64,000 bases of DNA from an uncultured Verrucomicrobia subdivision 3 bacterium (lineage in GTDB: Bacteria > Verrucomicrobiota > Verrucomicrobiae > Limisphaerales > UBA11358): the NCBI GenBank assembly GCA_903921455.1, contig CAIXPZ010000076.1, positions 9,763 to 73,762 of the forward strand, read 5' to 3'. This document shows, one piece after another, positions 9,154-47,122 of this stretch. The notes beneath the pieces are model-generated. The model was not told the origin of the DNA. It ran no database searches and saw only the letters and a program-made list of their open reading frames with translations. A program made the position numbers and the translations under genes. Position 1 is the stretch's first letter; the number at the start of each line of letters is the position of its first letter.

Positions 9154-9519
9154 TCACGGCGTGGGCGGCGTGGGTTTCTTTTTGTTCGTCTTGCCGGTGG
9201 CGCGTTCGCTCTTGCGGACGTAGCCCATGGCGTCATACAACTCGCCGTCTTCGCCCTCGGCGGGGTCGCCCTTGACGGCGTTCACCACGAGGAGCAGTTG
9301 CTTGTTGCTCTCCACGTCGGCGATGTCCCGCTCATCCATCGCGGCGGTCATCTGGTTGTCCAGTGTGTCAATCTGGCCGCGCGCGTCGAGGCTGGGCTGC
9401 ACCTTGGTCGTGAACTGCGCGAGCGTCATGCCCGCGAAGGTCTTGGCCGGGCGCAGGTCTTTCCAGGCTTTCATCACGGAGGCGAGTCTCTCGCCCGTTA
9501 ACTTTGGATTGTTTGGCAT
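9154..9519 (-). CDS. array-associated small protein (short relative of the 204-aa fn3 family)
   Basis: 121 residues with a strong Shine-Dalgarno (GGGAGGTG) just upstream of ATG 9519. Residues 45-85 are predicted helical. They are followed by Gly-Glu-Asp-Gly-Glu-Leu-Tyr-Asp-Ala-Met-Gly-Tyr-Val-Arg-Lys-Ser-Glu-Arg at 89-106, then a Lys- and Pro-rich tail. The helical hairpin followed by an acidic/Gly turn and a Gly-aromatic element resembles residues 45-110 of the two 204-aa proteins at 23176 and 46099, here without their C-terminal fibronectin-like domain. Like them, it has a 21-bp repeat array about 100 bp upstream of its start. Function unknown; the family link is by eye. Confidence 0.75.
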   Translation of the reverse strand: MPNNPKLTGERLASVMKAWKDLRPAKTFAGMTLAQFTTKVQPSLDARGQIDTLDNQMTAAMDERDIADVESNKQLLLVVNAVKGDPAEGEDGELYDAMGYVRKSERATGKTNKKKPTPPTP

Positions 9520-9619
9520 GTCGTTTCACCTCCCTTCGTTTGAACTCGGGTTCAAAAATGACAAATCCGAATCCTCGGCTGCCCGCGGCCGGCGAAGGCG
9601 GCCGACCACCCGCTGCCAC

Positions 9620-9829
9620 AAGACGACCCGGAACGCGCGGATTCCTCATCGGAACCGGCAGATGCCTCGTGGGAACGGAGACGTTCCTCATGGGAACGCA
9701 TGGATTCCTGACGGGAACGCGGACGTTCCTGACGGGAATTGGCAGGTTCCTCGTCGGAACGCGTCCATTCCTCATCGGAACGCTGGGGTACCAAGTGGGA
9801 ACGCGTGGATTCCGGCTCCGCTTTGGGGA
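9620..9829. repeat. 21-bp-period repeat array 1 (10 units)
   Basis: Ten consecutive units of exactly 21 bases. Most have a 15-base core with arms (A/G)TTCC and GGAA(C/T) around a variable five-base centre (for example TCATC, TCGTG, TGACG, TCGTC), then a variable 6-base linker. The core GTTCCTCATGGGAAC at 9683-9697 is a good example. End units are more degenerate. The array fills most of the 411-base gap 9520-9930 and lies about 100 bp upstream of the 121-aa gene. Because 21 is divisible by three and the sequence is GC-rich, several frames stay open on both strands, so openness is not evidence of coding. Confidence 0.9.
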
Positions 9830-9930
9830 ATTCCGAAGCCCATCCTGCCGACCCGCAGCCCGCATTATTGCTTGAAAATGCCGTATTTACTGGGGTTTCG
9901 GCGAAAACAAAAGAATTCGCCGGACGGCGC

Positions 9931-10296
9931 TCAACGTTTTGGACGGAAACATTCACCGTGGTCATTTAACCACTTCAGCCGGCCATGGGATATGCAACAA
10001 TAATTGCACCCCAGGCACTGCTCCGGCCAGCCCGCCACGCGCTGTTCCGCCCGCGCGGTCAAGACACTGCCCTTGAGGCCGAACGCGCGCCCGATGCGTT
10101 GGGCGGTTTCGACGCGGGCCAGCGACCGGTTCGTTTCGAGGGCGGCGATGCCCTGACGCCGGAGGCCGGAGATTTTCGCCAATTTGGTTTGCGACCAACC
10201 GCGTCGGAGCCGTTCCTCGCGGATGATGCCGCCCAAAGCGAAACAGACCGGCTCGCGAATACCCCGCGGCAGCGGTTCGAATTTTCCCTTGGCCAT
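9931..10296 (-). CDS. XRE-family HTH protein with a C-terminal cysteine cluster
   Basis: 121 residues with a strong Shine-Dalgarno (GGGAGGGA) before ATG 10296. Residues about 20-75 form a Cro/CI-type helix-turn-helix (Trp-Ser-Gln-Thr-Lys-Leu-Ala-Lys ... Gly-Ile-Ala-Ala-Leu-Glu). The C-terminus has Cys-x2-Cys-x2-Cys-Cys and a final Cys about 17 residues later, suggesting a metal or iron-sulfur site or redox sensing. It sits between the giant kinase (27 bp upstream) and repeat array 1. It may regulate the array locus, but adjacency is the only evidence. Confidence 0.85.
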   Translation of the reverse strand: MAKGKFEPLPRGIREPVCFALGGIIREERLRRGWSQTKLAKISGLRRQGIAALETNRSLARVETAQRIGRAFGLKGSVLTARAEQRVAGWPEQCLGCNYCCISHGRLKWLNDHGECFRPKR

Positions 10297-10323
10297 AAAG
10301 TCCCTCCCGTTCAGTTCAAGGTT

Positions 10324-13300
10324 TTAGTTATTTGGTAAGACCACATCTTTCCATTCGTGCACCCGAATGGAGCGCGTGCCGATGATGAATTTCGCCACGT
10401 CGGCCAGCGGAACGGGAAAGATAAATTGCACCACACGCACGCCGGTCGCGCGCACCACGCCTGTGCCATCACTCTGTCCGCCAGCTACAATGCCGCGCCA
10501 AACCAACGTCCGCCCGTCACGGGTGACGGCCACGGCGGACATTTGGCGGTCAGGCAAGGCGGCGGCATCGTAGGAAAATCCGATAAATGCCCAACCGTAT
10601 TTGGGGTCCTCCCCGACAATGTTGAGCATACCCTCGCCCTCCAAAGGCATCATCCCCCGGAAATCAGACGGCACCTCCTTGGTGTTTTCCAGCGGGCCGA
10701 GGCTATAGCGCATCCGCACCGTGACACGACCAGGCGGGTTAGACCCGCTTAAGTCATAGGCTTTGCTGAAGGTCTTGGTGCGCCAGGCCAATTGCCCGTG
10801 TCCCGTGCGCGCGAAACCGCTCCCCTCATTTCCGCGTGCGCTGGGCGGAATAACGTGGCCATTCACGTCCAGCAACGCCACGTCGTCCAGACTGTCTTCA
10901 TCAAAGAGCGGATGCGAGAACCACAGGTGCAAGAAACGCGGTTCGGGCGAGAGCGCAGGGCTGCCAACCTTGCAACCGCCAGGGAAAACGGTCTTGAGCC
11001 ATTTCAATTCCGTCGCATCCGTCACCCGCGAGCCGTCGGGATGCCGCGGTGCGCCAGAGTGGTCGTTTTGCCATTCATCCTGCCACGCGAGAAATTGCAG
11101 CTTGGGCGGCTCGGCTAGCAATGCAGGCGCGATGGCGGGATTGGTTTTGGCTGTGCCACCGTTTTGCACCAGCTTGTAGCGGAGTTTCACGCCGCGCGGG
11201 TTCTCGGTGAAGCCGGTGATTTGCAGAATTCCCATGCCGCCTTCGCGGGTTTTGAAAATATACGTTTTGGGCAATTCACCCACGCCACTGATTAATCGAT
11301 TTTCAAATGCAGGCTTTAAATTGGCGCAGTGCTGTATCACCTGTTTGGTATCTGCCTCATTCCAATCAGAACTAGTTACCTCGTATGCCCATGTTCCATA
11401 CGAGCAGAAAAGACCGTTTAGAGTCACCTGGTGGCTATTGGTGCCGTCTGAATTCATCGTTATCCAGTTCCTAATTCTGTCTCCGATGACATCTACCCCC
11501 ATTTTATTATAAAACTTGTCACAAGTTCCCCCGGATAATTCGTCCCAGTTTGTGGTTAACGAGGCAATCGGAGCTAGCGACACAAATCGTCCCGAATCTA
11601 AATCCAGAGCCGAGTTTGTGCCGGGTGATTCCAGATTCACCACCCGTTCCATTACCGGGCCGAAGGAAAGATTTTGGCTGGCTGGCCTGGACACTGCCGG
11701 AGGCGCGGTTTTTACCTGATCACGCAGCGTAAACATCGGGAGATAAAGTGAAATCAAGGAAAACACCAGCAGGAGAATGAGGGCTAGGAAAACAAACACG
11801 CCCCACGCAGCAAACAGGATTCGACTGGCGAATTTATGCAGCGCCCAGCAGAGGACCGCATCCAGCACCAGCACCACCGGCACCAGCAAATAGCCACCAG
11901 ACTGAATCAATTGCGCCAAGTGAAGGATAAACAGCGTTGCTCCCGGCAACTTGACGCCAAAGCCGGCGAATATCTCTTTAAAGTGCGGCACAATGGTCAT
12001 GCAGAAAACCACCAGCGCTAAAAACCCGATGCCGTGCAGCACAATGACCACCGCCAACCAGCCACGCGATTTTTGTTTAGTAGGAGCCGACGTGCGGAGG
12101 CTCTGACTTCCAGCCTTTTCAGTTTGAGAATCGTCACTTCGGCTGGTGTTTGGATTGGCTAGGCGTTTTTTACGCAAGTGGAGAAGGAAATCCACCGAGG
12201 TGACAAGCGGGAGCACAATAAACAGCGACACCCAGAAATTCCATTCAGGACTGCCTACCTTTTCTAAAAGCACCAAAAGAACGAGGACGAATATCCAAAG
12301 TCCCCAAATCGCATTAAGGACTCGCCCAGGACGATACGATGGCAACGATGTGAGTTTTGACTGGCCTCCTTTGGCCTGGATTTGAGCCTCCTCACGTCGG
12401 CTGCTACCGGGCGGCGTTATGCCAGCAATTCCTGCTTTGCGGTAGCGGAAAAGTATTTCCACCAACAAAAGCAGTGGAAGCTGGGGTAAAACCGACATGC
12501 AGAAATTCCATGCTGGACTACCGATATTTTTGGTGACCACCAAAGCCAGAACGACGAAAGCCCAAATCCGAATGGCAATTAGCCAAACCGGCCCTGGCAT
12601 GAAGCGGGTGTCCAACCCCGGCGCTCCAGGAGAAAATAATCCTCTGAACCAGCTTTCCGCCTTCTGCTTTCCGTTTTCAGTTTGAGCGGACTCATGTCGG
12701 CTCCTACCCGGTGGAGTTGCCACAATCGTTTCCACCAGCGTCTTCACGTCGCTGACTTGCTGGTAGCGGAGGGCGGGGTTCTTTTCCAGGGCGCGCAGGA
12801 CGATTTCGTCGAGGCGCACGTCAATCTGGACTTTGGCCGAGGGCGGCAACAGCCGCTTGCCGGGGAGTTCGCCGGTGAGCATCTGGTAAAACACCACGCC
12901 CAGCGCGTAGATGTCCGCGCGGTGATCCACCTCGCCCGGCGCTTGGATTTGTTCGGGCGACATGTATTGCGGCGTGCCCATGACTTTGCCCGCGTCGGTG
13001 AGAACCGGAGACCCCACACCCGGCTTCGCCACCCTCTCCCCGTCGGACGGGGTGAGGGACGGGGTGAGGGGCGCGTCATTGGCAATTATCTTCGCCAATC
13101 CGAAATCCGCCACCTTGACGCGCCCGCGCCGGTCCAGGAGGAGGTTCTCCGGCTTGATGTCGCGGTGGACGATGCCCTGGTCGTGCGCATATTGCAGCGC
13201 GTCGCAGATCTGCGGCACGATGGCCAGCGCCTCGCGCGCGGACACGCGGCTGCCGGCGAGCAGCTGCCGCAGGTTCACGCCGTCCACAAATTCCATGAGG

Positions 13301-13812
13301 AAGAAATAGAGGCTGCCCTCACCCGGCCTGCGGCCACCCTCTCCCATCGGATGGGAGAGGGACGGGGTGATGGTTGTTGTCGCGCCAAGGGTATTTTGCA
13401 CCTGACCGAACTCATACAGGGTGACGATGCCGGGGTGGTTGAGTTTGGCGAGCGCCTTGGCCTCGCGGGCGAAACGCTCGGCGAACGCCAGATCGTCGCC
13501 GATGCCGGGCGGCAGGATTTTCAGCGCGACGATGCGGTCGAGCTGTTTCTGCCGCGCCCGGTAAACCGCGCCCATGCCGCCCTTGCCGATGAGCTCGAGG
13601 ATTTCCAGCTGGGGAAAGAGCGGGGCGAGTTCGGCGATGGCTGGCGGCACGAACGTCTTTTGCCGGGCGTCGGTGACGGTGTCCGCCGCCGCGCCGGCCT
13701 GCAGCAGGCAGGCGGGGCAAAGCCCGGCGAGCGCGCCGCTGGGAAGGGGCGTGCCGCAGTGCGGGCAGTGATTGGCGTCAGGCATCGGCGGGTCCATTTT
13801 TACCGGGTCCAT
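10324..13812 (-). CDS. giant membrane Ser/Thr protein kinase with N-terminal zinc ribbon
   Basis: About 1160 residues. The N-terminus is a Cys-x2-Cys ... Cys-x2-Cys zinc ribbon of the 'CPHCGTPLP' type. A Hanks-type kinase follows: P-loop Gly-Lys-Gly-Gly-Met-Gly, Ala-Leu-Lys, catalytic His-Arg-Asp-Ile-Lys-Pro-Glu-Asn, Asp-Phe-Gly, and Ser-Pro-Glu-Gln. Several membrane helices come next, then a large, probably extracytoplasmic C-terminal region with no family I recognise. ATG 13812 is chosen; a GTG at 13818 is possible. Two stretches (13015-13072 and 13320-13371) are in-frame insertions of a short genomic repeat, one between beta-strands of the N-lobe and one in the activation segment. All catalytic motifs are retained. 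Confidence 0.9.
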   Translation of the reverse strand: MDPVKMDPPMPDANHCPHCGTPLPSGALAGLCPACLLQAGAAADTVTDARQKTFVPPAIAELAPLFPQLEILELIGKGGMGAVYRARQKQLDRIVALKILPPGIGDDLAFAERFAREAKALAKLNHPGIVTLYEFGQVQNTLGATTTITPSLSHPMGEGGRRPGEGSLYFFLMEFVDGVNLRQLLAGSRVSAREALAIVPQICDALQYAHDQGIVHRDIKPENLLLDRRGRVKVADFGLAKIIANDAPLTPSLTPSDGERVAKPGVGSPVLTDAGKVMGTPQYMSPEQIQAPGEVDHRADIYALGVVFYQMLTGELPGKRLLPPSAKVQIDVRLDEIVLRALEKNPALRYQQVSDVKTLVETIVATPPGRSRHESAQTENGKQKAESWFRGLFSPGAPGLDTRFMPGPVWLIAIRIWAFVVLALVVTKNIGSPAWNFCMSVLPQLPLLLLVEILFRYRKAGIAGITPPGSSRREEAQIQAKGGQSKLTSLPSYRPGRVLNAIWGLWIFVLVLLVLLEKVGSPEWNFWVSLFIVLPLVTSVDFLLHLRKKRLANPNTSRSDDSQTEKAGSQSLRTSAPTKQKSRGWLAVVIVLHGIGFLALVVFCMTIVPHFKEIFAGFGVKLPGATLFILHLAQLIQSGGYLLVPVVLVLDAVLCWALHKFASRILFAAWGVFVFLALILLLVFSLISLYLPMFTLRDQVKTAPPAVSRPASQNLSFGPVMERVVNLESPGTNSALDLDSGRFVSLAPIASLTTNWDELSGGTCDKFYNKMGVDVIGDRIRNWITMNSDGTNSHQVTLNGLFCSYGTWAYEVTSSDWNEADTKQVIQHCANLKPAFENRLISGVGELPKTYIFKTREGGMGILQITGFTENPRGVKLRYKLVQNGGTAKTNPAIAPALLAEPPKLQFLAWQDEWQNDHSGAPRHPDGSRVTDATELKWLKTVFPGGCKVGSPALSPEPRFLHLWFSHPLFDEDSLDDVALLDVNGHVIPPSARGNEGSGFARTGHGQLAWRTKTFSKAYDLSGSNPPGRVTVRMRYSLGPLENTKEVPSDFRGMMPLEGEGMLNIVGEDPKYGWAFIGFSYDAAALPDRQMSAVAVTRDGRTLVWRGIVAGGQSDGTGVVRATGVRVVQFIFPVPLADVAKFIIGTRSIRVHEWKDVVLPNN
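13015..13072. repeat. repeat-element insertion 1 inside the kinase gene
   Basis: A short GC-rich element (Cs around CACCCTCTCCCC, then GTCGGACGGGGTGAGGG) with palindromic character lies in the kinase activation-segment coding region. On the coding strand it reads Thr-Pro-Ser-Leu-Thr-Pro-Ser-Asp-Gly-Glu-Arg-Val, a typical translated genomic repeat, without breaking the frame. It matches the copy at 13320-13371. Confidence 0.75.
13320..13371. repeat. repeat-element insertion 2 inside the kinase gene
   Basis: Same element and orientation as the copy at 13015-13072 (CACCCTCTCCCATCGGATGG then GAGAGGGACGGGGTGA). It reads Thr-Pro-Ser-Leu-Ser-His-Pro-Met-Gly-Glu-Gly-Gly on the coding strand and inserts about 20 residues between N-lobe strands, just before the hinge Leu-Tyr-Phe-Phe-Leu-Met-Glu-Phe. 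Confidence 0.75.
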
Positions 13813-13878
13813 GCCCACTTCAGAAGCAAATCCGGCGGGACGTTACCGGAAAAATGCTGAAACCACGAAAACGCGCGC

Positions 13879-14247
13879 TCAACTCACGAGCCGCAGGCAA
13901 AGCGGATACCGGTAGAACCCGCCTTCGGAGGCTTTGACGGCGGCGACAATGGGCAACACCAGGGCCATGACCATCAACGCCAATAGCAGCGGGAACCCGA
14001 TGATGATCATGGTCAAAACGACGGCGCAGATGCCGTAAATAAACAACGACAGGTGAAAGTTCAGCGATTCGCGGGCGTGGGCGGCGATTTTTTCCGACTC
14101 CCCCTTTTTCACCAGATAAATGATGAGCGGAAAAATCAGCCCCACCCCGAGAAACAGCGACAGGTGGCAAAGGATGATCAGCAATTTTTCGTTATTGTCC
14201 GGCGGGGCGACCGGCGGCGGGGCGATCAAGGGCGGCGGGTTTTCCAT
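13879..14247 (-). CDS. DUF4870 (Tic20-like) membrane protein
   Basis: 122 residues from ATG 14247 (the open frame extends to a TTG at 14259). A Pro-rich N-terminus is followed by Glu-Lys-Leu-Leu-Ile-Ile-Leu-Cys-His-Leu-Ser and about three hydrophobic segments. The family motif with Lys-x-Ile-Ala-x-His-Ala-Arg-Glu-Ser-Leu-Asn-Phe-His lies between segments one and two, typical of DUF4870. It is an integral membrane protein of unknown role. It lies upstream of the kinase on the same strand, 66 bp away. Confidence 0.85.
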   Translation of the reverse strand: MENPPPLIAPPPVAPPDNNEKLLIILCHLSLFLGVGLIFPLIIYLVKKGESEKIAAHARESLNFHLSLFIYGICAVVLTMIIIGFPLLLALMVMALVLPIVAAVKASEGGFYRYPLCLRLVS

Positions 14248-14307
14248 CGGCGAAGGCAAGCAAAGCCGTCCGCTTTCGGCAAGTATTATTCCGCGCGACG
14301 GCCAAAT

Positions 14308-15204: not shown

Positions 15205-15216
15205 CTTTGTATTGGC

Positions 15217-15284
15217 CACAGAGCCACGGAGGGCAGAGAGAAAATAGTGTGCTGACTCTGTGTTCTCTGTGCCCCGGTGGCGAA
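15217..15284. repeat. intergenic imperfect inverted repeat
   Basis: Arms beginning GCCACAGAGCCACGGAG and ending GTGCCCCGGTGGC are approximate reverse complements across the ubiX-ubiA gap. Same class as the elements at 4144, 20590, 25984 and 44761. Confidence 0.6.
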
Positions 15285-15285
15285 T

Positions 15286-15843: not shown

Positions 15844-16000
15844 TGGCGAAAATAATGGCTGAATCCAGCCCGGCAAACAAGCCGCACGGGAACCAAAGGC
15901 GCAAGGGGGCTCCCGGCATGCGCGGACGCCCAATCCGCCAAAATTGCCAGCGCGAATCGAAACAGCTTGAGTCCGCATTTTGCTTCCGCACAATTGGCGC

Positions 16001-17098: not shown

Positions 17099-17133
17099 AA
17101 CGAGGATGGAGCATCGAGAATGGAGGATAGCAT

Positions 17134-17520: not shown

Positions 17521-17529
17521 CCGACGCCC

Positions 17530-23175: not shown

Positions 23176-23790
23176 CTAAGTGCTCATGTGGCTGGTCACA
23201 TCGGTCCAATCGCTGTAACCGGTGCTCCCGCCCAAGGCGCGCAGGCGGATCCAATACGTCGTCCCCGGCGTGAGGTTTTTCAGGATCATCCGCCGCGTGT
23301 TCTGGAACAACTGCCACGGCCGCCAGTTTTCATCACCCGTGTGGATCCATACCTCATACATGCGCGCGTTTTTGATGGGCTTCACCTTGAGGCCGAGCTG
23401 CGTGCTGGCCACGTTGGTAGTCCGCAGCAGAACCGGCTTGGGCAGTTGCGTGGGGGTGGTGTTCCGCGAGGCCACGTCGAAGCCTGAAGTATAGATTTTG
23501 CTGATATCCCCCTTGGCGGTGAACTGCACATACGCCGCCAGCTCACGCAGGAGCCGGATCACCACTTGGCGCTGCTTCGCCCGGGCGGCAATCAGCGCCC
23601 GCCCGCGATCCTTCGCTGCAATGATGGCATCAACATACGTCGTGCGCGCACTGTCCAGATCGGCCAAAGGAACCGGCGGTGACGGGAAATGACTGTTCCC
23701 CAAGAGGCGGTCATGTATGCGCAAGATGGTCGAAGCCAGTTGGGATTCTGACTCACGTCGAAATGAAAGTGAAACACGTATGGCTGCCAT
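23176..23790 (-). CDS. array-associated 204-aa fibronectin-III-like protein
   Basis: 204 residues from ATG 23790, preceded by AGGAAAGGA. Residues 5-12 read Arg-Val-Ser-Leu-Ser-Phe-Arg-Arg. Residues 44-90 are helical, Thr-Ser-Gly-Phe occurs at 101-104, and the C-terminal 85 residues form a fibronectin-III-like domain (Tyr-Glu-Val-Trp ... Leu-Thr-Pro-Gly-Thr-Thr-Tyr-Trp-Ile-Arg-Leu-Arg-Ala). It aligns gap-free with the protein at 46099-46713 through residue 104 and has the same total length. The frame stays open upstream into repeat array 2, but the ATG with its Shine-Dalgarno is the better start. There is no signal peptide, so it is probably cytoplasmic. Role unknown. Confidence 0.85.
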   Translation of the reverse strand: MAAIRVSLSFRRESESQLASTILRIHDRLLGNSHFPSPPVPLADLDSARTTYVDAIIAAKDRGRALIAARAKQRQVVIRLLRELAAYVQFTAKGDISKIYTSGFDVASRNTTPTQLPKPVLLRTTNVASTQLGLKVKPIKNARMYEVWIHTGDENWRPWQLFQNTRRMILKNLTPGTTYWIRLRALGGSTGYSDWTDVTSHMST

Positions 23791-23875
23791 AAGGTGATGT
23801 CCTTTCCTGAACCCACGGCTTGGCTGCCTCCAGGAAGCATCCTCAAGCCGAGGTGAAACGACCTTACGCCTGTCT

Positions 23876-24295
23876 TTGCTGAGCGACAAGCACGTTTTTC
23901 TGAGCGGCAAGACTGGCTTGACAGCAGGCAATTTTGCCTTGCTGAACGGCAACTTCAGCTTGCTTGGCGGAAATGCTAACTTGCTTGGCGGCCATATAAT
24001 TTTACCTCCAAGCAATGATTCTTTGCCGTTAGGCTAGACTGTCTTGCCGCTTAGCTAGTCTGGTTTGCTCCAAAGCAATTGTGTCTTGCCGCTCAGCAAA
24101 GTGGCGCACAAGCCTGCTTGGGGAAGGCAGAAGCATCGTTCCCTGACGGAAAAGCATGCTTAAGTCACGAAAACAAGCCATTCCCAGTCGCCTAGGCATG
24201 GTTCCCGAAGCAAAACACGTCATTCTCGATTGCCTGGGCATGGTGCACGAACGGAAGCAAGTCATTCCCTGACAGAACCACATCAATGCGCATCG
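23876..24295. repeat. 21-bp-period repeat array 2 (20 units, two sub-blocks)
   Basis: Twenty consecutive 21-base units with no phase change over 420 bases. Units 1-11 have arms TTGC ... GCAA around a variable centre (for example TTGCTGAACGGCAAC). Units 12-20 belong to a second subtype built on AAGCATnGTTCC-like cores. Each is followed by a variable 6-base linker. A 21st, degenerate unit may follow. The array begins about 85 bp upstream of the start of the 204-aa gene and fills most of the 641-base gap 23791-24431. No reading frame is open across the whole array, which argues against a repeat protein. Confidence 0.92.
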
Positions 24296-24431
24296 TTCTC
24301 ATGCCTCGGCCAGAAGCGGAGACTTGGTTGACGCGGACACAGGCATGATTTCCTCCCGCCCACACATTGATGCCCAGCCGGGAAATTTCGGCGCGACACG
24401 TTGGGGGAAAGGCGCTAGGCTCGGACACATC

Positions 24432-36334: not shown

Positions 36335-36346
36335 GGCCTTGGCCGC

Positions 36347-38903: not shown

Positions 38904-39240
38904 GCGGCAACGCTAGGTCGCCCGCCCCAGCCTGTCCAGCAGTGATTTTGCCCCCCACGGCCAGGTCGTTGCCCCCCACCCCACTTTGGGTCCGGACTGC
39001 CGCCGCCGGCATCCAGCATGTCCAAAATTTGTGAATATGGGCTTCCGTCGCTTTGACTCCGGCAAAAACGTTTTTTGCGTTTGAGCAATAGAGTAGACCC
39101 TTTTGATAGCTTTTTGACCTTTTGGCGGGGTTGGACGAACCTCGTGATGCCATTAGGGATGGATAATGGGCGGCGGATGGCCGCTGTCGGGTCGTTTCTT
39201 GGTGACGCGGGACGGCCAACGCCCCGGTCGGCACGCGGGG
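38904..39240. other. intergenic region with GCCCCCCAC direct repeats, possible IS remnant
   Basis: 337 bases without a convincing gene. TTGCCCCCCAC occurs twice, at 38948-38958 and 38969-38979 (21 bases apart). G/C-box direct repeats of this kind occur near ends of some IS21-type elements, but no transposase fragment is recognisable. Nothing else is seen apart from short open stretches on both strands. Confidence 0.3.
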
Positions 39241-40281: not shown

Positions 40282-40323
40282 GGCGGACAGGTTGCCAGCG
40301 ACGCGGACGAAGGCAAGTGGTTC

Positions 40324-42171
40324 CTATTCGAAGATGCTCAATTCGCGGTTGGCCTTGCGGAGTTTGCCGGTCAGATCGAGGCAAAGGCGCTGCAGGATTT
40401 TGATTTTGAGCTCCGGATGGTTTTTCCCGAGTTCATTAAAATCGGCCAACGCCAGCATGTCGCACTCCACCTCCGTGTCGGCGACGATGTTGGCGGAACG
40501 CGGCGCGCCGTCGAGAAACGCCATTTCACCGAACGCCATGCCCGGGGAGAACGTGGCGAGGCGATGGCGCTCCTCGCCGGGCAGCAGCACGCTGACGTGG
40601 CCGCGCGTGAGGAAGAACATTTCCGTGGCGGCGTCGCCGGCGCTGATGATGAACTGGCCGGCCTTGAAATTTTTCGGGTGCAGCAGCGGCTGAAGGATCT
40701 TCAGCTCGGCGGCGGACAAATCCCGGAGCAATTCGTAGTCGGCGGGCTTCGCCTTGTAATTCGGCGCGTGGGCATACCGGGTGTTTTCCAGCAGGGTTTC
40801 CTCGCACCATTCCAGCGCCAGATCGTTGCTGGGATAGGTGACAAACAAATCCGCGAACTGCCCGGCGAGCTTTTTCTTCATCATGCGGCGCAGCAGGGGC
40901 AGATGTTCACCGTGCGTGAAGATCACGGTTTTTTCGGCGGCGTGCAGTTTGTTGACGAGCGAATGCAGCAGATGCCCGGCGCTCTCGTTCAAGCTGAGGA
41001 CGCGCTTCAGGTCGAGGATAAGAAACTGGATGGCCTCCGCCTGGTCCAGCACATCGCGCACGACCGTTTCGGTGGTGGCGAAGGCGAGATGGCCCTGCAA
41101 TTGATAGACGTGGATCACCTTGGCCAGTTCGCGCAGCGCCTGGCCTTCCTCGGCGGTGCGCACGTGGGTGGAGTTGAATTTGGCACCGGTGAACTTGGCG
41201 CGGATGGTGGATCTGCCAACGACCGGACGATTGAACAAGTGCAGGTCGAGGTGGCGCGACAATTCCTTGCAAACGGCGATGCCGCGCACGCTATTGCCGT
41301 GCGCATCCAGCTTCGGCGAAAAAACGCCGATGCCAATCTGCCCCGGCAACACTGCCAGCACGCCGCCGGCGACGCCGCTCTTCGCGGGAATGCCGACGTG
41401 ATAAAGCCACTCGCCCGCGTAGTCATACATGCCGCAGGTGCCCATCACGCTCAATACGCTCTCCACATACTCGGCACGCAAAGCTTGTTTGCCGGTGAGC
41501 GGATTGACGCCGCGATTCGCCAGCGTCGCGGCCATGACGCCGAGGTCGCGGCAATTGACGGAGATGGAACATTGCTTGAAATAAATTTCGGTCGTCGGCG
41601 CGGGGTCGCCGGTAAGCTTGTCAAAATTGCGCAGCATGTGCCCGATGGCACGATTGCGATGGCCGGTCTCGCTTTCGGATTGATACACTTTTTCGTCCAG
41701 TCCCAATTCCCGGCCGGCATAAAGCGAGAAGGTTTCCAGAATGCGCTTGAACCGCGACGCCGGCGTTTTGCCCGCAATCAAGCCCGCCGTGGCAATGGCG
41801 CCGGCATTGATCATCGGATTGCGCGGACGGCCCGTGCCGGGATCAAGACTGATGGAGTTGAATGCGTCACCCGTCGGTTCCACGCCCACCCGGTCCAGCG
41901 TCACGTCGCGGCCGTTGTCCTCAAGGGCGAGACCATACACGAAGGGCTTGGAGATGGATTGAATGGTGAATTCCTGCCGCGTGTTACCGACCTCATAAAC
42001 CGAGCCGTTCGCGGTGACGAGACAGATGCCGAACCAATCAGGATTCGCCTTCGCCAGTTCGGGAATGTAAGTCGCCACGTGGCCGTCTTTATCCCCGGCA
42101 TATTTCCGGTGGATTTCTTGCAGGAATTCCTCGATCGGTGAAACGAATTGGGGCACGGACTGGTTTTTCAT
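40324..42171 (-). CDS. glsA: glutaminase fused to STAS and cyclic-nucleotide-binding domains
   Basis: 615 residues from ATG 42171 (an AAGGAG lies about 15 bases upstream; a longer frame to 42225 lacks one). Residues about 20-310 are a GlsA-type serine glutaminase: catalytic Ser in Gln-Ser-Ile-Ser-Lys-Pro-Phe, Asn-Pro-Met-Ile-Asn-Ala-Gly-Ala-Ile, Pro-Ala-Lys-Ser-Gly-Val-Ala-Gly-Gly. A STAS domain follows at about 350-450 (Leu-Ile-Leu-Asp-Leu-Lys-Arg-Val). The last 120 residues are a cNMP-binding fold (Phe-Gly-Glu-Met-Ala-Phe-Leu-Asp-Gly-Ala-Pro-Arg-Ser-Ala). It converts glutamine to glutamate and ammonia; the added domains suggest allosteric control by a nucleotide and by protein partners. Confidence 0.93.
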   Translation of the reverse strand: MKNQSVPQFVSPIEEFLQEIHRKYAGDKDGHVATYIPELAKANPDWFGICLVTANGSVYEVGNTRQEFTIQSISKPFVYGLALEDNGRDVTLDRVGVEPTGDAFNSISLDPGTGRPRNPMINAGAIATAGLIAGKTPASRFKRILETFSLYAGRELGLDEKVYQSESETGHRNRAIGHMLRNFDKLTGDPAPTTEIYFKQCSISVNCRDLGVMAATLANRGVNPLTGKQALRAEYVESVLSVMGTCGMYDYAGEWLYHVGIPAKSGVAGGVLAVLPGQIGIGVFSPKLDAHGNSVRGIAVCKELSRHLDLHLFNRPVVGRSTIRAKFTGAKFNSTHVRTAEEGQALRELAKVIHVYQLQGHLAFATTETVVRDVLDQAEAIQFLILDLKRVLSLNESAGHLLHSLVNKLHAAEKTVIFTHGEHLPLLRRMMKKKLAGQFADLFVTYPSNDLALEWCEETLLENTRYAHAPNYKAKPADYELLRDLSAAELKILQPLLHPKNFKAGQFIISAGDAATEMFFLTRGHVSVLLPGEERHRLATFSPGMAFGEMAFLDGAPRSANIVADTEVECDMLALADFNELGKNHPELKIKILQRLCLDLTGKLRKANRELSIFE

Positions 42172-42351
42172 AGTGTTTTTAACGGGCTCCTTGGCTGCGG
42201 TCTGATTACCGACAACTTTGCGCAAGATGAACTTTCACGGCAAATCCGTCAAGCCGCCAATCATCGCCGGCCAGGCGCATAAACCACCATTTTATTGCCG
42301 AGGTTTTCAATTGCGCAACGGGCGCAAACATGGGAGATTGTCCGCCTAATT

Positions 42352-42371
42352 TATAATTAGAATGATTCTAA
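42352..42371 (+). promoter_or_regulatory. sufD promoter -10 box overlapped by a Fur/PerR-type palindrome
   Basis: TATAAT (42352-42357) looks like a -10 element. TTAGAATGATTCTAA (42357-42371) is a perfect 7-1-7 palindrome with the geometry of Fur-family operators (PerR/Fur/Zur). It ends three bases before the chosen sufD ATG at 42374. A repressor bound here would block transcription of the suf operon. Confidence 0.65.
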
Positions 42372-42373
42372 AT

Positions 42374-43711
42374 ATGACGCCGAACGCAAATAACGGAACG
42401 GAACTGCTGGTCGCCAAGTTTTCGCAGGTGGAAAATTCCGCGCAGCCCCAATGGCTGCTGCCCGTGCGGAAGGCCGGCCTCGCCAGCTTTGCCGAGCAGG
42501 GCTTCCCGAAATTGACCGACGAAGACTGGCGCTTCACCAATGTGGCCCCGATTGCCAAGCTGCCCTTCACCCTCGCCGGCCAAGGCTCCGTCAACGGCGC
42601 CGAGACCAAAGCGCTCGATGGATCCGTCTTTGCCGCCCTGCCCGGCCATCGCCTGGTGTTCGTGAACGGCTTTTTCTCCGCGAAACTTTCCCGCATCAAG
42701 CCCGTGACGGGCGGCGTCCGGATTGAGAATCTTTCCGCCGCGCTGGCCCGGGACGCCGCGGCCATCGAGCAACATCTCGGCAAATACGCCCACACGGCGG
42801 GCAATTCCTTCGCCGCGATGAATCAGGCGCTCTTTGCCGACGGCGCGTTCATCTTCGTGCCCAAGGGCGTCGCGGTCGCCGAACCCGTGCAGTTGATTTA
42901 CATTTCATCCGCCAAGCAAAGCGGCGAGACCATCCTTCCCCGCAACCTCGTCATCGCCGAAGCGGGCAGCCAACTGACCGTGGTCGAGAGCTACATCAGC
43001 ACCACCGACGTCGCCTATTTTACCAATGCCGTGACCGAAATTATCGCTGGCGACCATGCCTCGGTTGAACACGTCAAGGTGCAGGATGAAGCCGCAACGG
43101 CCTATCACATCGCCACCATCGCGGGCGAATTCGGCCGCGCGAGCAATGTCAGCGTCCATTCGTTTGCGCTCGGCGCCAAGCTCTCGCGGAACAACATCCG
43201 CACCAAGCTCGCGGGCGAAGGTCTGGAGTGCATCCTGAACGGGCTGTATCTCACCAAGGGCGAGCAGCTCGCCGACCATCACATGATTGTCGAGCATGCC
43301 CAGCCGCATTGCGCGAGCCACGAGTATTTCAACGGCATCCTGGACGATAAATCCAAGGGCGTGTTTCACGGCCGGATTTATGTCCATCCCATCGCCCAGA
43401 AAACCGACGCGAAGCAGACGAACAAAAACCTGCTGCTCTCCGACGACGCCTGCGCGGACACGAAGCCGCAGTTGGAGATTTACGCCGACGACGTGAAATG
43501 CACGCACGGCGCGACCATCGGGCAGTTGAATGATGAAAGCATATTTTATCTCCGCTCGCGCGGCATCGGCACGGACATGGCGCGGCAGATGTTGATTCAT
43601 GCCTTTGCCGGTGAGATCATTGAGCGCATCCAATGCGAGCCGGCCCGCGAAGTCATTGACAAGCTGGTGTGGGACCGCCTCGAGGCGCATCCGCATCTGT
43701 TGGGAAAGTAA
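42374..43711 (+). CDS. sufD: Fe-S cluster assembly protein SufD
   Basis: 445 residues from ATG 42374; an ATG at 42362 lies inside the operator palindrome and is less likely. Leu-Thr-Asp-Glu-Asp-Trp-Arg-Phe-Thr-Asn near residue 45 is the SufD N-terminal signature. The right-handed beta-helix core and the Lys-Thr-Asp-Ala-Lys-Gln-Thr-Asn-Lys-Asn-Leu-Leu-Leu-Ser-Asp-Asp-Ala, Cys-Thr-His-Gly-Ala-Thr-Ile-Gly and Leu-Arg-Ser-Arg-Gly-Ile segments follow. SufD forms the SufBC2D scaffold. No sufB or sufC is adjacent, so the rest of the complex must be encoded elsewhere. First gene of sufD-sufU-sufT-sufS. Confidence 0.95.
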   Translation: MTPNANNGTELLVAKFSQVENSAQPQWLLPVRKAGLASFAEQGFPKLTDEDWRFTNVAPIAKLPFTLAGQGSVNGAETKALDGSVFAALPGHRLVFVNGFFSAKLSRIKPVTGGVRIENLSAALARDAAAIEQHLGKYAHTAGNSFAAMNQALFADGAFIFVPKGVAVAEPVQLIYISSAKQSGETILPRNLVIAEAGSQLTVVESYISTTDVAYFTNAVTEIIAGDHASVEHVKVQDEAATAYHIATIAGEFGRASNVSVHSFALGAKLSRNNIRTKLAGEGLECILNGLYLTKGEQLADHHMIVEHAQPHCASHEYFNGILDDKSKGVFHGRIYVHPIAQKTDAKQTNKNLLLSDDACADTKPQLEIYADDVKCTHGATIGQLNDESIFYLRSRGIGTDMARQMLIHAFAGEIIERIQCEPAREVIDKLVWDRLEAHPHLLGK

Positions 43712-43713
43712 TA

Positions 43714-44169
43714 ATGTTCGACGACATCAACGACCTTTATCAGCAGGTCATTCTTGATCACTGCAAGAAGCCGCGCAATTTCCATGAGATGCCGCAGTGC
43801 TCCTGCTCCGCGCAGGGGTTCAACCCGCTCTGCGGCGATAATTTAAAGCTCTTTCTCACGCTCGACGGCGACATCATCAAAGACGCGAGCTTCGTCGGCT
43901 CCGGCTGCTGCATTTCCAAGGCGTCCGCCTCGTTGCTGACGGAAAACGTCAAGGGCAAGACCCGCGCGGACGCGGAAAAGATGTTCGAACGCGTCCGCGA
44001 ACTCGTCACCACCGGCAAGGCCGACGGCGATGTCGGCAAACTCGCGGTCTTTGCGGGGGTTTACAAATATCCCGCCCGCGTGAAGTGCGCCATCCTCGCG
44101 TGGCACGCGCTCATCGGCGCGCTCAAGGGCGAAGGCCAGCCCGTCAGCACCGAAAACGAGCAGACCTGA
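43714..44169 (+). CDS. sufU: SUF-type sulfur-transfer/scaffold protein SufU
   Basis: 151 residues from ATG 43714, three bases after the sufD stop. The Cys ligands are present in Asn-Pro-Leu-Cys-Gly-Asp, Gly-Ser-Gly-Cys-Cys-Ile-Ser-Lys-Ala-Ser-Ala-Ser and Val-Lys-Cys-Ala-Ile-Leu-Ala-Trp, the IscU-like SufU set binding zinc. It accepts sulfur from SufS. An extra Cys (Cys-Cys) follows the central ligand. Confidence 0.95.
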   Translation: MFDDINDLYQQVILDHCKKPRNFHEMPQCSCSAQGFNPLCGDNLKLFLTLDGDIIKDASFVGSGCCISKASASLLTENVKGKTRADAEKMFERVRELVTTGKADGDVGKLAVFAGVYKYPARVKCAILAWHALIGALKGEGQPVSTENEQT

Positions 44170-44208
44170 TTTGATTTTGGCCGGCACAACAGCGAAGATG
44201 ATTCTATT

Positions 44209-44760
44209 ATGAGTTCCGAAGCAAAGATCTTGACCCGCGACGTGGAAGCTTCCGTCGTGCCCATCGGCACGAAGGTCACGCTCCAGCAGGGTGAGACCGC
44301 CCATATCACGCAATCCCTCGGCGGCACTTACACCGTCGTCGTCAACGGCAACATGTTCCGCATCGAAGCCAAGGACGCCGACGCGCTCGGCCTCGAAGCG
44401 CCCGTGGCCGCCGCGCCCGTGGCCGCCACCGGCCCGGTGACGCAGGAACAATTGGAGAAAAAAGTCTGGGAAGCCCTGAAGACCTGCTACGACCCCGAGA
44501 TTCCCGTCAACATCGTGGACCTCGGCCTGATTTACGACTGCCACCTCACCCCCATCGGCGCGGACAACTTCAAGGCCGACGTGAAGATGACGCTGACCGC
44601 GCCCGGCTGCGGCATGGGGCCCGTCCTCGCGCAGGACGTGCAGAACAAACTGGTCTCCCTGGAGCCGATTGACGAGGCGAACGTCGAACTCGTCTGGGAT
44701 CCGCCGTGGAACCAGAGCATGATGACCGAGGCGGCCAAGTTGCAACTGGGACTTTTATAA
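44209..44760 (+). CDS. sufT: DUF59/MIP18 Fe-S assembly protein SufT
   Basis: 183 residues. A beta-rich N-terminal domain (residues 1-75) with Gly-Thr-Lys-Val-Thr-Leu-x-Gln-Gly-Glu, then the MIP18 domain (Thr-Cys-Tyr-Asp-Pro-Glu-Ile-Pro-Val-Asn-Ile-Val-Asp-Leu-Gly-Leu-Ile-Tyr, Pro-Gly-Cys-Gly-Met-Gly-Pro). This two-domain form is the usual SufT linked with suf operons; it aids maturation of Fe-S proteins. Confidence 0.94.
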   Translation: MSSEAKILTRDVEASVVPIGTKVTLQQGETAHITQSLGGTYTVVVNGNMFRIEAKDADALGLEAPVAAAPVAATGPVTQEQLEKKVWEALKTCYDPEIPVNIVDLGLIYDCHLTPIGADNFKADVKMTLTAPGCGMGPVLAQDVQNKLVSLEPIDEANVELVWDPPWNQSMMTEAAKLQLGLL

Positions 44761-44838
44761 TCCGCCGATTTCGCCGATTAACTCAGATGAGTTCTTGTTT
44801 TTAATCTGCGTCCGTCTGCGTAATCTGCGGAAAAACTC
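44761..44838. repeat. intergenic inverted repeat in the sufT-sufS gap
   Basis: TCCGCCGATTTCGCCGATTA and the reverse complement of the segment ending CTGCGTAATCTGCGGA pair imperfectly. Same class as the elements at 15217, 20590 and 25984, and here within an operon. Confidence 0.55.
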
Positions 44839-44840
44839 CG

Positions 44841-46073
44841 ATGAATAATACTGTTGATTGGTCCGCGCTGCGGCAGGATTTCCCGATCCTCCACCAGAAT
44901 GTCCACGGCAAACCGCTGGTGTATCTCGACAATGCCGCGACCTCGCAGAAGCCCCGCAGCGTGATTGACGCGCTCGTCCATTATTACGAGCACGACAACG
45001 CGAACGTCCACCGCGGCATCCATGAATTGAGCAACCGCTCCACGATCGCCTTCGAAGCCGCCCGGACCCGCGCCGCGAAATTCATCAATGCCCGGTCCGC
45101 CGACGAGATCATCTTCACGCGCGGCACGACCGAGGGCATCAACCTCGTGGCCGCCACCTGGGGTGCCAAGAATTTGAAGGCCGGCGACGTGATCCTGCTC
45201 ACCGAACTCGAGCATCACAGCAATCTCGTCCCGTGGCAGATGCTCGCCCAGCGCACCGGCGCGAAGATCGCCTACCTTCCCGTCACCGGCGACGAAGGCA
45301 TTCTCGATTTAAGCAATCTGGATGCGCTCCTCAGCTCGTCGGTGAAAATACTTTCGCTGGTGCACATCTCGAACTCCATGGGCACCGTCAATCCCGTGGA
45401 GGAACTCTGCGCCCGCGCGCGGCAACGCGGCATTGTCACGCTGGTGGACGGCGCGCAAAGCGCGGGGCACCTGCCCGTTGACGTGCAGGCCATCGGCTGC
45501 GACTTCTTTGCCTTCTCCGGTCACAAGATTTGCGGGCCGACCGGCATCGGTGTGCTCTGGGGCCGGCAGGAAATCCTCGACGCCATGCCCCCCTATCAAG
45601 GCGGCGGCGAAATGATCTTGTCCGTCGGCTATCAAAAGACGGAATACAAACACGCCCCGCACCGCTTCGAAGCGGGCACGCCCGACATCTCCGGGCCCAT
45701 CGGCTTGCACGCGGCGATGGATTACCTCGACGCCATCGGCCGCGCCAATATCTGGCGGCACGACCAGGAACTCGCGCAGTATGCGGTGGAAAAACTCAGT
45801 TCCTTGAAGAACATCCGGCTGTTCGGCCCCAGGACCAACCGCGCCGGCCTGGTCAGCTTTCTGCTCAAGGACGTCCATGCGCACGATGTCGTGACGCTCG
45901 CCGATCAAGGCGGCGTGGCCTTGCGGGGCGGCCATCATTGCACGCAGCCTTTGATGCACAAACTCGGGGTGGAATCCACCGCCCGGGCGAGCTTCTATTT
46001 TTACAACACGAACAGCGAAGTGGACGCCTTCATCGAAGTCATCAAAGAGATTCAGAAGTTCTTCGCCGCGTAA
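44841..46073 (+). CDS. sufS: cysteine desulfurase SufS
   Basis: 410 residues, a class V aminotransferase fold. Leu-Asp-Asn-Ala-Ala-Thr-Ser-Gln-Lys-Pro, Thr-Arg-Gly-Thr-Thr-Glu-Gly-Ile-Asn, PLP-lysine in Phe-Ser-Gly-His-Lys-Ile-Cys-Gly-Pro-Thr-Gly, and the catalytic Cys region Leu-Arg-Gly-Gly-His-His-Cys-Thr-Gln-Pro identify SufS. It removes sulfur from cysteine and passes it to SufU. A hairpin follows directly at its stop. Confidence 0.96.
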   Translation: MNNTVDWSALRQDFPILHQNVHGKPLVYLDNAATSQKPRSVIDALVHYYEHDNANVHRGIHELSNRSTIAFEAARTRAAKFINARSADEIIFTRGTTEGINLVAATWGAKNLKAGDVILLTELEHHSNLVPWQMLAQRTGAKIAYLPVTGDEGILDLSNLDALLSSSVKILSLVHISNSMGTVNPVEELCARARQRGIVTLVDGAQSAGHLPVDVQAIGCDFFAFSGHKICGPTGIGVLWGRQEILDAMPPYQGGGEMILSVGYQKTEYKHAPHRFEAGTPDISGPIGLHAAMDYLDAIGRANIWRHDQELAQYAVEKLSSLKNIRLFGPRTNRAGLVSFLLKDVHAHDVVTLADQGGVALRGGHHCTQPLMHKLGVESTARASFYFYNTNSEVDAFIEVIKEIQKFFAA

Positions 46074-46101
46074 GTTCACGGCGGCGGCAACGCCGAACTT
46101 A
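46071..46101. terminator. hairpin between convergent sufS and the array-associated fn3 gene
   Basis: TAAGTTC (46071-46077) pairs with GAACTTA (46095-46101), and GGCG (46080-46083) with CGCC (46091-46094). The stem includes both stop codons. No T-run, so termination is inferred from position. Confidence 0.5.
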
Positions 46102-46713
46102 AATCGCGCGGCACGTAATCATGTCGCTCCATTCGCTAAAATCGTGGAGGCCGCCCGCCGCCCGCACGCGGAGGTAATATAACTTGCCGGGCACGAGGTT
46201 TTTCACCAGCGCCTTGCGCGTCCGGGTGGAGGTGCCGGCGGCAAACCAGTTCACCCCGTCCTCGCTGGCCTCAAATTCATAATATCGGGCGTTGCGCACC
46301 CCCTTGAACGTCAGCCGGAGCGTCGTGGTCTCCGCGTAGGCATGGGAAAGGATGCTCGGCACGTCCAGCGCGGTGCGCACATGCGTCGTGCGCATCAGCG
46401 AGAAGCCGGTGGAGAGCATCACGGCGCCATTCTGGCCGCCCTGGTCCTCGGTATGTTTGGCCAGCAGACGCAAGGCGAGCAGCAACTCGTGGCGCGCGGC
46501 GCGTTTGGCGAGCGTGGCCAACGGGCCCCCGCTTATTCGCGCGGCCAAGGCACTGCGATACGTATCATGCAAGGCGGTCAGGGCGGCAGGGCTGACCGGT
46601 GGATTCGGAAAAGCGGGATTATTCGTGAAACCGTCGGCGATACTCAGGGCAAAGGGAGCCAGAGGCGCATCCCGCATGCGCCGAAAACTTAAGCTGATCC
46701 GCAATGGTCTCAT
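46099..46713 (-). CDS. array-associated 204-aa fibronectin-III-like protein
   Basis: 204 residues from ATG 46713, preceded by AGAAAGG. It matches the protein at 23176-23790 in length and layout: Arg-Ile-Ser-Leu-Ser-Phe-Arg-Arg at 5-12, Phe-Pro-Asn-Pro-Pro-Val at 35-40, a helical hairpin at 44-90, Ser-Thr-Gly-Phe at 101-104, and a fibronectin-III-like C-terminus (Tyr-Tyr-Glu-Phe-Glu-Ala-Ser-Glu-Asp-Gly ... Leu-Val-Pro-Gly-Lys-Leu-Tyr-Tyr-Leu-Arg-Val-Arg-Ala). No signal peptide. Array 3 begins about 115 bp upstream. Function unknown. Confidence 0.85.
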   Translation of the reverse strand: MRPLRISLSFRRMRDAPLAPFALSIADGFTNNPAFPNPPVSPAALTALHDTYRSALAARISGGPLATLAKRAARHELLLALRLLAKHTEDQGGQNGAVMLSTGFSLMRTTHVRTALDVPSILSHAYAETTTLRLTFKGVRNARYYEFEASEDGVNWFAAGTSTRTRKALVKNLVPGKLYYLRVRAAGGLHDFSEWSDMITCRAI

Positions 46714-46828
46714 GATGCTGCCTTTCTGACCGGCGCGGCTGCCCAATGCCGCCGCCGCCCGGTGCTTGGATACCTTTTATCGGCTCAATTCTTTTTCTAT
46801 CTGCTCACCTTTTGCCCCGCGTTGCGAG

Positions 46829-47122
46829 TCTAAAACACAACTTCGGCTAGTTTTTAGGTTTATTTCTGCAAAAAAGTAATTTTGCTGCAAAGCCTTGGCT
46901 TCAAGCTTTGCGGCTTTGTCATTTGGCTGCACAACATTATACCATAACCGCAGAACATTGCTTTTATACTCTAAAGCATTGAGGCGATGCTGTTCGTCAT
47001 CATCATCATGTCGCAAAACTTTAATGTTTTGCTCTGGGACAACATGGTTTTGCTTTGGAACTAAGCATTGATGTCCTGCAGCTTTAGCCTGATGCCGCAA
47101 AGCTTTACGCTCAATCGAATCC
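46829..47122. repeat. 21-bp-period repeat array 3 (14 units)
   Basis: Fourteen consecutive 21-base units. A 15-base core begins GC/AC and usually ends GC (for example GCATTGAGGCGATGC at 46976-46990), followed by a 6-base linker often of the form CGCAAA or TGCAAA. The centres vary more than in array 1, and the sequence is AT-rich compared with the genome. A minus-strand frame (46777-47124) is open across the array, giving a heptad-like 115-aa translation, but the other arrays do not support coding. It occupies the middle of the 751-base gap 46714-47464; nothing else is evident in that gap. Confidence 0.85.

What the first reader, a model, noticed from the sequence alone, without database searches (positions are those of the whole stretch)
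9154..47122. Three 21-bp-period repeat arrays, each just upstream of a member of one protein family
Seen: exact-period arrays at 9620-9829, 23876-24295 and 46829-47122. Each lies about 85-115 bp upstream of the start codon of a minus-strand gene (9154-9519, 23176-23790, 46099-46713). The second and third genes encode 204-aa proteins that align without gaps over residues 1-104 (shared Arg-x-Ser-Leu-Ser-Phe-Arg-Arg, Phe-Pro-x-Pro-Pro-Val, Thr/Ser-Gly-Phe). The first encodes a shorter relative without the fn3-like domain. Three of three with the same orientation and spacing is unlikely by chance. Arrays differ in sequence between loci but are homogeneous within a locus, as expected from local amplification. 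Inference: array plus protein form one unit, copied at least three times. I know of no named system with this layout.
Basis: partly seen in the sequence, partly recalled or inferred. Interest (0 to 1): 0.92.

Follow-up and report, generated by a model that had tools for sequence, protein, structure and literature searches.

The report
Palindromic 21-base repeat arrays before genes
Some soil and water bacteria carry blocks of about ten to twenty tandem copies of a roughly 21-letter mirror-image DNA word, usually just in front of one family of small unknown proteins but also elsewhere and even inside an essential gene; the rhythm and the mirror symmetry stay while the word itself differs from block to block.

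Summary
In detail: three 21-bp-period arrays lie 86-116 bp upstream of three minus-strand genes. Two genes encode fn3-containing paralogues; the third (121 aa) is not detectably related, though its homologues often carry arrays too. The link is not chance: 61 of 73 well-scoring fn3-family genes have a 21/42-bp array within 600 bp upstream, against 1 of 69 downstream; a few others have 20- or 22-bp arrays. But array plus protein is only half the story. In G019, 15 of 15 arrays in stretches not chosen for these genes have no such gene nearby, and in-frame 21-bp arrays sit in one loop of alaS in 4 of 30 genomes examined, each with a different palindrome. Units are dyad-symmetric, arrays share only a faint common motif, and close paralogues can carry unrelated cores. 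I propose a DNA-level tandem palindrome that grows and is rewritten by sequence-independent copying in both orientations (slippage plus inverted template switching), is gained at new sites, and is kept 5' of fn3-family genes, perhaps as a cis-acting structure. Association, presence/absence and turnover are shown; mechanism and function are inferred. Six searches aimed at such arrays found no description.

The parts
9620..9829 (.). Array 1: 21-bp period, half-sites GTTCC and GGAAC alternating about every half period, read on the gene strand
   Evidence: lag-21 peak 0.595; units with dyads listed; TRF 9629-9783
9154..9519 (-). 121-aa protein of a separate family, 329 homologues at E<=0.001; no Pfam or NCBIfam family
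   Evidence: no detectable relation to the fn3 family
23876..24295 (.). Array 2: 21/42-bp period; about 23862-24092 with TTGC/GCAA half-sites, about 24093-24302 with another core
   Evidence: lag-21 peak 0.562; TRF periods 21 and 42; units
23176..23790 (-). 204-aa protein, conserved N-terminal region plus fn3 domain (24.9 bits, Pfam cut-off 25)
46829..47122 (.). Array 3: degenerate 21-bp period, GCAGC/GCAAA-type half-sites with dyads
   Evidence: lag-21 peak 0.467; units; not reported by TRF
46099..46713 (-). 204-aa paralogue, fn3 domain below Pfam's cut-off (16.5 of 25 bits)
   Evidence: 33% identity over 198 residues to the 23176-23790 protein

Best explanation
The arrays are DNA-level tandem palindromes with a locked period of about two helical turns (mostly 21 bp, in a few loci 20 or 22). 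Shown: half-sites alternate in orientation; each array is locally coherent; arrays share at most a faint motif with each other; an array can be present at a site in one genome and absent in relatives; and an array's core can be replaced while place and period stay. Inferred: units are copied into neighbours in direct and inverted orientation (replication slippage plus inverted template switching at hairpin-prone DNA), which makes and keeps palindromes and lets a new core sweep an array. Inferred: upstream of fn3-family and 121-aa-family genes the array is kept by selection as a cis-acting DNA structure (expression, supercoiling or recombination between copies); elsewhere it is tolerated, 21 bp being seven codons, so in-frame arrays survive even in alaS.
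For: 61 of 73 against 1 of 69. Best dyad centre beats the 95th percentile of column-permuted controls in 34 of 80 arrays outside long ORFs. Same-orientation identity falls 0.51 to 0.39 over eight units, and arm complementarity falls as smoothly from 0.45 to 0.39 with no excess for arms of the same unit, as copying in both orientations predicts and covarying hairpins do not. G.T and A.C mismatches equal, 827 and 804; no mean GC skew in 57 gene-oriented arrays. Within-genome arrays (G019, G011; 310 pairs) are no more alike than the other 2693 pairs (4.5% and 4.2% above the null 99% point). Four alaS genes with arrays of four different cores at one loop, 26 of 30 without. trpE array in G019, 0 of 7 relatives; rlmN array in 1 of 8 relatives with another core. 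Paralogues L150/L157 with unrelated cores at the same place. 34 arrays at lag 21 against 0-3 at each of eight other lags.
Against: The copying process was not observed; orthologous arrays in very close strains were not available. Both pair classes exceed the 1% expected by chance about fourfold, and a weak common TCCG...CGGA tendency exists, so sequence is not wholly free. It does not explain why the period is 20-22 bp or why fn3 genes keep an array 5'. 12 of 73 strong fn3 genes lack a 21/42-bp array within 600 bp. Stop codons are fewer than in column-permuted arrays (1179 against 1783), which hints at other sequence constraints. 46 of 80 arrays do not pass the dyad test. Some arrays fold well as RNA.
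Confidence: 0.5

Rival explanations
1. Operator arrays: a dimeric protein or filament binds one half-site per helical turn on one face of the DNA and controls the downstream gene; cores differ because binding is only weakly specific or because each locus has its own regulator.
For: Dyads with a period near 2 x 10.5 bp; fixed place upstream of fn3 genes; no strand skew; faint common TCCG...CGGA tendency.
Against: Cores are unrelated even between paralogues 83% identical in protein and among the 25 G019 arrays listed; arrays also lie in convergent gaps and inside alaS; 20- and 22-bp periods would lose helical phase over many units.
Confidence: 0.25
2. Guide-RNA or structured-RNA arrays: the array is transcribed and processed into 21- or 42-nt RNAs, like a TIGR stem-loop array.
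For: Short repeats that vary between loci beside a protein gene; 12-13-bp palindrome plus more variable 8-9 bp in some arrays; RNA folds better than shuffles for arrays 1 and 2 and L150 (z -3.75, -2.62, -6.36).
Against: No same-unit covariation; G.T equals A.C mismatches; z only -1.31 and -1.09 for array 3 and L188; Nop domain PF01798 in 0 of 18 genomes (a Pfam profile could miss diverged Tas proteins); no Rfam match in the window; arrays inside alaS.
Confidence: 0.08
3. A mobile element that inserts whole arrays copied from elsewhere, as palindromic element families do.
For: Presence/absence between relatives at trpE, rlmN and alaS; intergenic and in-frame sites; multi-copy array plus gene.
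Against: No array family sequence within a genome; no shared end sequence was noticed in the arrays printed, though no systematic search for ends or target duplications was made.
Confidence: 0.12
4. Coding heptad repeats: the arrays encode 7-residue repeats, and the intergenic ones are remnants of coding tracts.
For: 21 bp is seven codons; alaS arrays are in frame; fewer stops than in permuted arrays and 76 of 378 frames open against 47 expected; window array 3 is open in one minus frame (ORF 46777-47124); some lag-21 regions are plain coding repeats (L155, L159; probably L312).
Against: 80 of 86 pooled arrays lie outside ORFs of 250 aa or more; the four alaS arrays encode unrelated heptapeptides; window array 2 has stops in all six frames; 20- and 22-bp arrays occur.
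Confidence: 0.04

Closest known systems
Rickettsia palindromic elements (RPE)
   Same: Palindromic DNA found both between genes and fused in frame into conserved protein genes (passages of PMC2229807)
   Different: RPEs are 105-146-bp elements with terminal inverted repeats forming sequence families; here tandem 21-bp units with no family sequence
PARCEL (palindromic amphipathic repeat coding elements)
   Same: Tandem repeats whose DNA has dyad symmetry, patchy distribution (abstract and passages of PMC2996958)
   Different: PARCELs are 25-residue protein-coding repeats with a conserved protein motif; most arrays here are outside long ORFs
TIGR arrays
   Same: Short repeats conserved within a locus and varying across loci, beside a protein gene; stem-loop variants (passages of PMC12045711)
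   Different: TIGR units give 36-nt RNAs and lie beside Nop-domain Tas genes; Nop in 0 of 18 genomes here, unit 21/42
REP/BIME extragenic palindromes
   Same: Extragenic palindromes in high copy (start of abstract of PMC3733652 in a search listing)
   Different: REPs form sequence families tagged GTAG or CGTC according to that title; no family sequence here
Minisatellites and quasipalindrome template switching
   Same: Tandem units gained and lost in place; template switching can create and maintain perfect stems (abstract of PMC8794818)
   Different: Period locked at 20-22 bp, dyads in every array type, and a fixed 5' link to one gene family

Membership tests
TIGR-Tas | Nop-domain Tas protein encoded by the genome | tested here: not met
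   PF01798 in 0 of 18 genomes; the control rang in 4 archaea. Diverged Tas could be missed by the Pfam profile.
TIGR-Tas | two alternating 8-12-nt repeats with 9-nt spacers, unit about 36 nt | tested here: not met
   unit 21/42 bp (20 or 22 in some), palindromic half-sites in alternation
TIGR-Tas | array transcribed and processed to small RNAs | not testable with these tools
   no RNA data
RPE-like palindromic elements | insertion both between genes and in frame inside conserved genes | tested here: met
   alaS in 4 of 30 genomes; intergenic arrays
RPE-like palindromic elements | one sequence family dispersed over the genome | tested here: not met
   within-genome array similarity equals between-genome similarity
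PARCEL | dyad symmetry of tandem repeats | tested here: met
   34 of 80 arrays above the 95th percentile of permuted controls
PARCEL | 25-residue coding repeat | tested here: not met
   period 21 bp; 80 of 86 arrays outside ORFs of 250 aa or more
minisatellite | tandem units of some tens of bp at a locus, variable between relatives | tested here: met
REP/BIME | tagged REP sequence and associated RAYT transposase | not tested
   no search for RAYT was made
CRISPR | cas genes beside the array | not tested
   only the three window proteins were scanned against PADLOC: one weak match, Csx19 E 0.009, to the 23176-23790 protein

The most novel reading that the evidence does not exclude
A nearly sequence-agnostic genetic element whose heritable identity is its period (two helical turns) and its mirror symmetry: a machinery, perhaps involving the small fn3 or 121-aa proteins that so often sit beside an array, builds and rewrites palindrome arrays at particular places in the genome, giving each place its own private palindrome.
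Probability: 0.25. Interest if true: 0.95.

Novelty: new variant of a known kind. Interest (0 to 1): 0.8.

Why it matters
Repeats are normally classed by sequence; these are held together by rhythm and symmetry, and their sequence turns over as a block while the place stays. If confirmed, they are a natural system in which slippage and inverted template switching can be watched acting together in bacteria, a candidate new type of cis-acting DNA structure tied to two families of unknown small proteins, and a source of in-frame peptide inserts in an essential tRNA synthetase. Searches by sequence similarity would tend to miss them; a lag-and-dyad scan finds them.

Tried and rejected
RNA hairpin selection was tested by same-unit versus different-unit pairing, by G.T against A.C mismatches and by strand skew, without support. 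The within-array excess (50 of 64 arrays) is biased because the dyad centre was chosen on the same data; one search is the fairer test. The second dyad centre 10.5 bp away follows arithmetically from one centre plus the period and is not independent evidence.

Homology of the 121-aa and 204-aa families: profile-profile comparison negative. TIGR-Tas: Nop search negative. Sigma-70-like sites: no enrichment between array and gene or on the far flank.

Array density in fn3-negative relatives: 0 solo intergenic arrays in 249 kb, against 22 in 1.46 Mb of fn3-positive stretches; 13 of the 22 come from G019, and some stretches were chosen on contigs with fn3 hits, so this is only suggestive. The within-genome class holds G019 and G011 pairs only; other same-genome pairs (such as L016/L037) were counted with the rest. 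In one search, 8 genes with under 450 bp of upstream sequence were dropped, matches lacking the N-terminus were left out, weaker matches (15) were counted apart, several of the 73 genes are paralogues from the same genomes, and the two window genes are not in the 73. Of seven close pairs only two align through the array; one pair (L029/L033, proteins 91% identical) shares no upstream sequence. The alaS search matched 39 of 40 genomes, of which 30 gave loci.

Literature: six word searches were aimed at such arrays and three at comparison systems; none of the listings showed a description of such arrays. The library holds open-access PMC papers only, and no supplements were read.
Full report
WHAT WAS CLAIMED AND WHAT IS THERE. 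The three arrays exist. Lag-21 self-match in 210-bp windows is 0.595, 0.562 and 0.467 at arrays 1-3, the three highest lag-21 peaks of the 64-kb window; 100 block-shuffled windows never exceeded 0.438 at lags 21/42. Tandem Repeats Finder reports pieces of arrays 1 and 2 only; array 3 is degenerate, and lag 30 reaches 0.462 elsewhere in the window. The gaps to the start codons are 101, 86 and 116 bp, all three genes being on the minus strand.

THE PROTEINS. The genes at 23176-23790 and 46099-46713 encode 204-aa paralogues (33% identity over 198 residues, no gaps). The C-terminal fn3 domain scores 24.9 bits in the first (Pfam cut-off 25) and 16.5 in the second; the N-terminal region matched no family convincingly. 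39 homologues were found, one named by its source as Pyrinomonadaceae and one as Acidobacteriota. The 121-aa protein (9154-9519) belongs to another family with 329 homologues at E<=0.001; BLASTP and profile-profile comparison show no relation to the fn3 family.

THE LINK IS REAL. A scan of genome records with the fn3 alignment returned 75 loci, mostly in records titled as Verrucomicrobia groups, some as Acidobacteria or Blastocatellia (a few bins titled Klebsiella or Akkermansia look mislabelled, which is my inference). Upstream 21/42-bp periodicity is conspicuous in many of them, in both phyla. After adding loci from whole genomes and removing duplicates, 61 of 73 genes that match the profile at 100 bits or more, include the N-terminus and have at least 450 bp of upstream sequence show a 21/42-bp array within 600 bp upstream, against 1 of 69 in 600 bp downstream. 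Two of the 12 misses have a 21-bp array further out (L001, L159). Of 15 weaker matches 8 have a 21/42-bp array; five of the other seven have another lag on top, and looking at six of those seven shows 22-bp arrays at L137, L138, L169 and L213 and 20-bp arrays at L190 and L215. For the 121-aa family 5 of 8 strong and 2 of 4 weaker matches have a 21/42-bp array within 600 bp, and L078 has one further out. Even in the densest genome seen (15 arrays in 383 kb) a random 600-bp stretch would touch an array about 4% of the time (my arithmetic). The family is patchy: in 194 genomes drawn from the phylum of G006, 14 had a match, most of them weak matches inside long proteins; the clear ones are G006 itself, G035 and G140. 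Among relatives of G019 29 of 59 had a match.

THE UNIT IS A PALINDROME WITH ALMOST NO FAMILY SEQUENCE. In 80 arrays outside long ORFs the best dyad centre pairs with mean probability 0.53, against 0.44 for column-permuted controls; 34 of 80 exceed the 95th percentile of the controls, where 4 are expected. Conservation is highest 2.5-4 bp from the centre and low near both centres, so the picture is a conserved half-site about every 10.5 bp in alternating orientation. Unit identity decays from 0.51 to 0.39 over eight units; complementarity decays as smoothly from 0.45 to 0.39 without any excess for arms of the same unit. Among 78 arrays, consensus similarity of 310 pairs within G019 or G011 equals that of the other 2693 pairs (4.5% and 4.2% above the null 99% point); both are about four times the chance rate, which fits a faint common TCCG...CGGA tendency. 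The 25 G019 consensus words listed are all different.

ARRAYS OUTSIDE THE FAMILY. In G019 stretches picked partly for fn3 hits (329 kb) 20 lag-21 regions were found (0-2 at control lags), 13 beside an fn3 gene, and 13 of 13 fn3 ORFs found there had one; of the other seven, two are plain coding repeats and one another tandem repeat. In further G019 stretches (383 kb) the stricter count is 15 arrays, none near an fn3 or 121-aa gene, 13 of them outside long ORFs; in 400 kb of one G011 contig it is 5, none near. The single fn3 genes in these two sets carry 20- and 22-bp arrays instead (L190, L169). Solo arrays lie in divergent, tandem and convergent gaps (gene calls there are simple longest-ORF calls). 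Over all stretches, 34 arrays at lag 21 stand against totals of 0-3 at lags 15, 18, 19, 20, 22, 23, 24 and 27.

THE alaS CASE. In G019 one array lies in frame inside alanyl-tRNA synthetase, in a loop before the DIAFRVIADH segment (I recognised the enzyme from its sequence). 39 of 40 genomes searched had a match and 30 gave loci. Of these 30 (G019 included), four carry 21-bp arrays at this loop: G019, G230, G227 and G232. 26 show none; in two of these the loop anchors were not found, and several others have array-free loops of varied length. The arrays keep frame and place but encode unrelated heptapeptides from four different words (VGANPPM, GSTDKPI, RTENxLP/xxREAV, SPNVGTP). G232 has no fn3-family match. 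So neither the fn3 gene nor a given DNA or peptide sequence is needed for an array to exist.

GAIN AND TURNOVER. The trpE array of G019 is absent in 7 of 7 relatives with 80-90% identical trpE, one of them with only 425 bp of upstream sequence. The divergent gap is 581 bp in G019, 223 bp in G227 and about 214 bp in G220 (extrapolated start); in the four other relatives tested the neighbour gene was not found. At rlmN 1 of 8 relatives (G230) has an array, with another core; 7 have none. Two G019 paralogues (L150, L157: proteins 83% identical; 237 aligned columns across the gap and gene start at 80%) carry arrays at the same place with unrelated cores. Of seven close pairs compared, two (L016/L037, L146/L154) align through array and far flank, so there array and gene were copied together; L029/L033 share no upstream sequence.

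HOW IT MOST LIKELY WORKS. Shown: period lock, dyads, local coherence in both orientations, near absence of a family sequence, presence/absence, core turnover, and the 5' place at fn3 genes. Inferred: copying of units into neighbours in direct and inverted orientation, that is slippage plus inverted template switching. The abstract of PMC8794818 says template switching can create and maintain perfect stems; this fits the equal numbers of G.T and A.C mismatches (827 and 804) and the absence of mean strand skew (0.002 in 57 arrays). Also inferred: selection keeps the array 5' of fn3-family and 121-aa-family genes as a cis-acting DNA structure. I give this picture 0.5 and operator arrays for a dimeric protein 0.25. 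Against the picture: it does not say why the period is 20-22 bp, 12 of 73 genes lack the array nearby, 46 of 80 arrays do not pass the dyad test on their own, stop codons are depleted in arrays, and some arrays fold well as RNA (z -3.75, -2.62 and -6.36, but -1.31 and -1.09 for two others).

WHAT IT RESEMBLES. Rickettsia palindromic elements share the in-frame and intergenic habit (passages read) but are sequence families; PARCELs share tandem dyads (abstract and passages) but are 25-residue coding repeats; TIGR arrays share short repeats that vary between loci (passages), but the Nop profile matched 0 of 18 genomes. The Methylacidiphilum fumariolicum genome paper reports 54 short tandem repeats; the passages read do not describe such a structure. 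Six searches aimed at such arrays found no description.

VERDICT. The array is a regular companion of the fn3 family, but it belongs to a wider class of palindromic arrays defined by period and symmetry rather than sequence. As an object I rate it a new variant of dispersed palindromic and minisatellite repeats; it would be categorically new if a dedicated machinery is behind it.

Noticed in passing
L008, L019, L024, L029, L038, roughly 110 bp upstream of the fn3 start codon: A small ORF of about 35 codons with repeated W-D-G-like motifs (ITWDGKD.QGKPF.WDTPGLTWDG) lies between array and fn3 gene and ends at its start; L137 and L215 show short ORFs with a similar rhythm.
   Followed up: no
L154:11268-12218 and L191:8042-8794: Arrays also lie 163 and 124 bp upstream of a 317-aa and a 251-aa protein, neither with a Pfam match: possibly further array-associated families.
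   Followed up: partly
window 23176-23790 and 46099-46713: The C-terminal part matches PHROG 6977 (minor tail protein) at E 6.8e-4 and 3.3e-6, probably through the fn3 fold.
   Followed up: no
L262, L263, L264, L284 and other alaS loci: The same alaS loop also holds array-free inserts of very different length in relatives (44 to 123 residues), so it is a generally tolerant site.
   Followed up: partly
L013 and L017 (contig ends 53 bp upstream of nearly identical fn3 genes): Contigs of one bin break just upstream of two 97.6% identical fn3 genes, as if arrays hindered assembly; arrays may be undercounted in draft genomes.
   Followed up: no
L022, L050, L065: Record titles Klebsiella pneumoniae and Akkermansia muciniphila on metagenome bins carrying this family look like mislabelled bins.
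   Followed up: no
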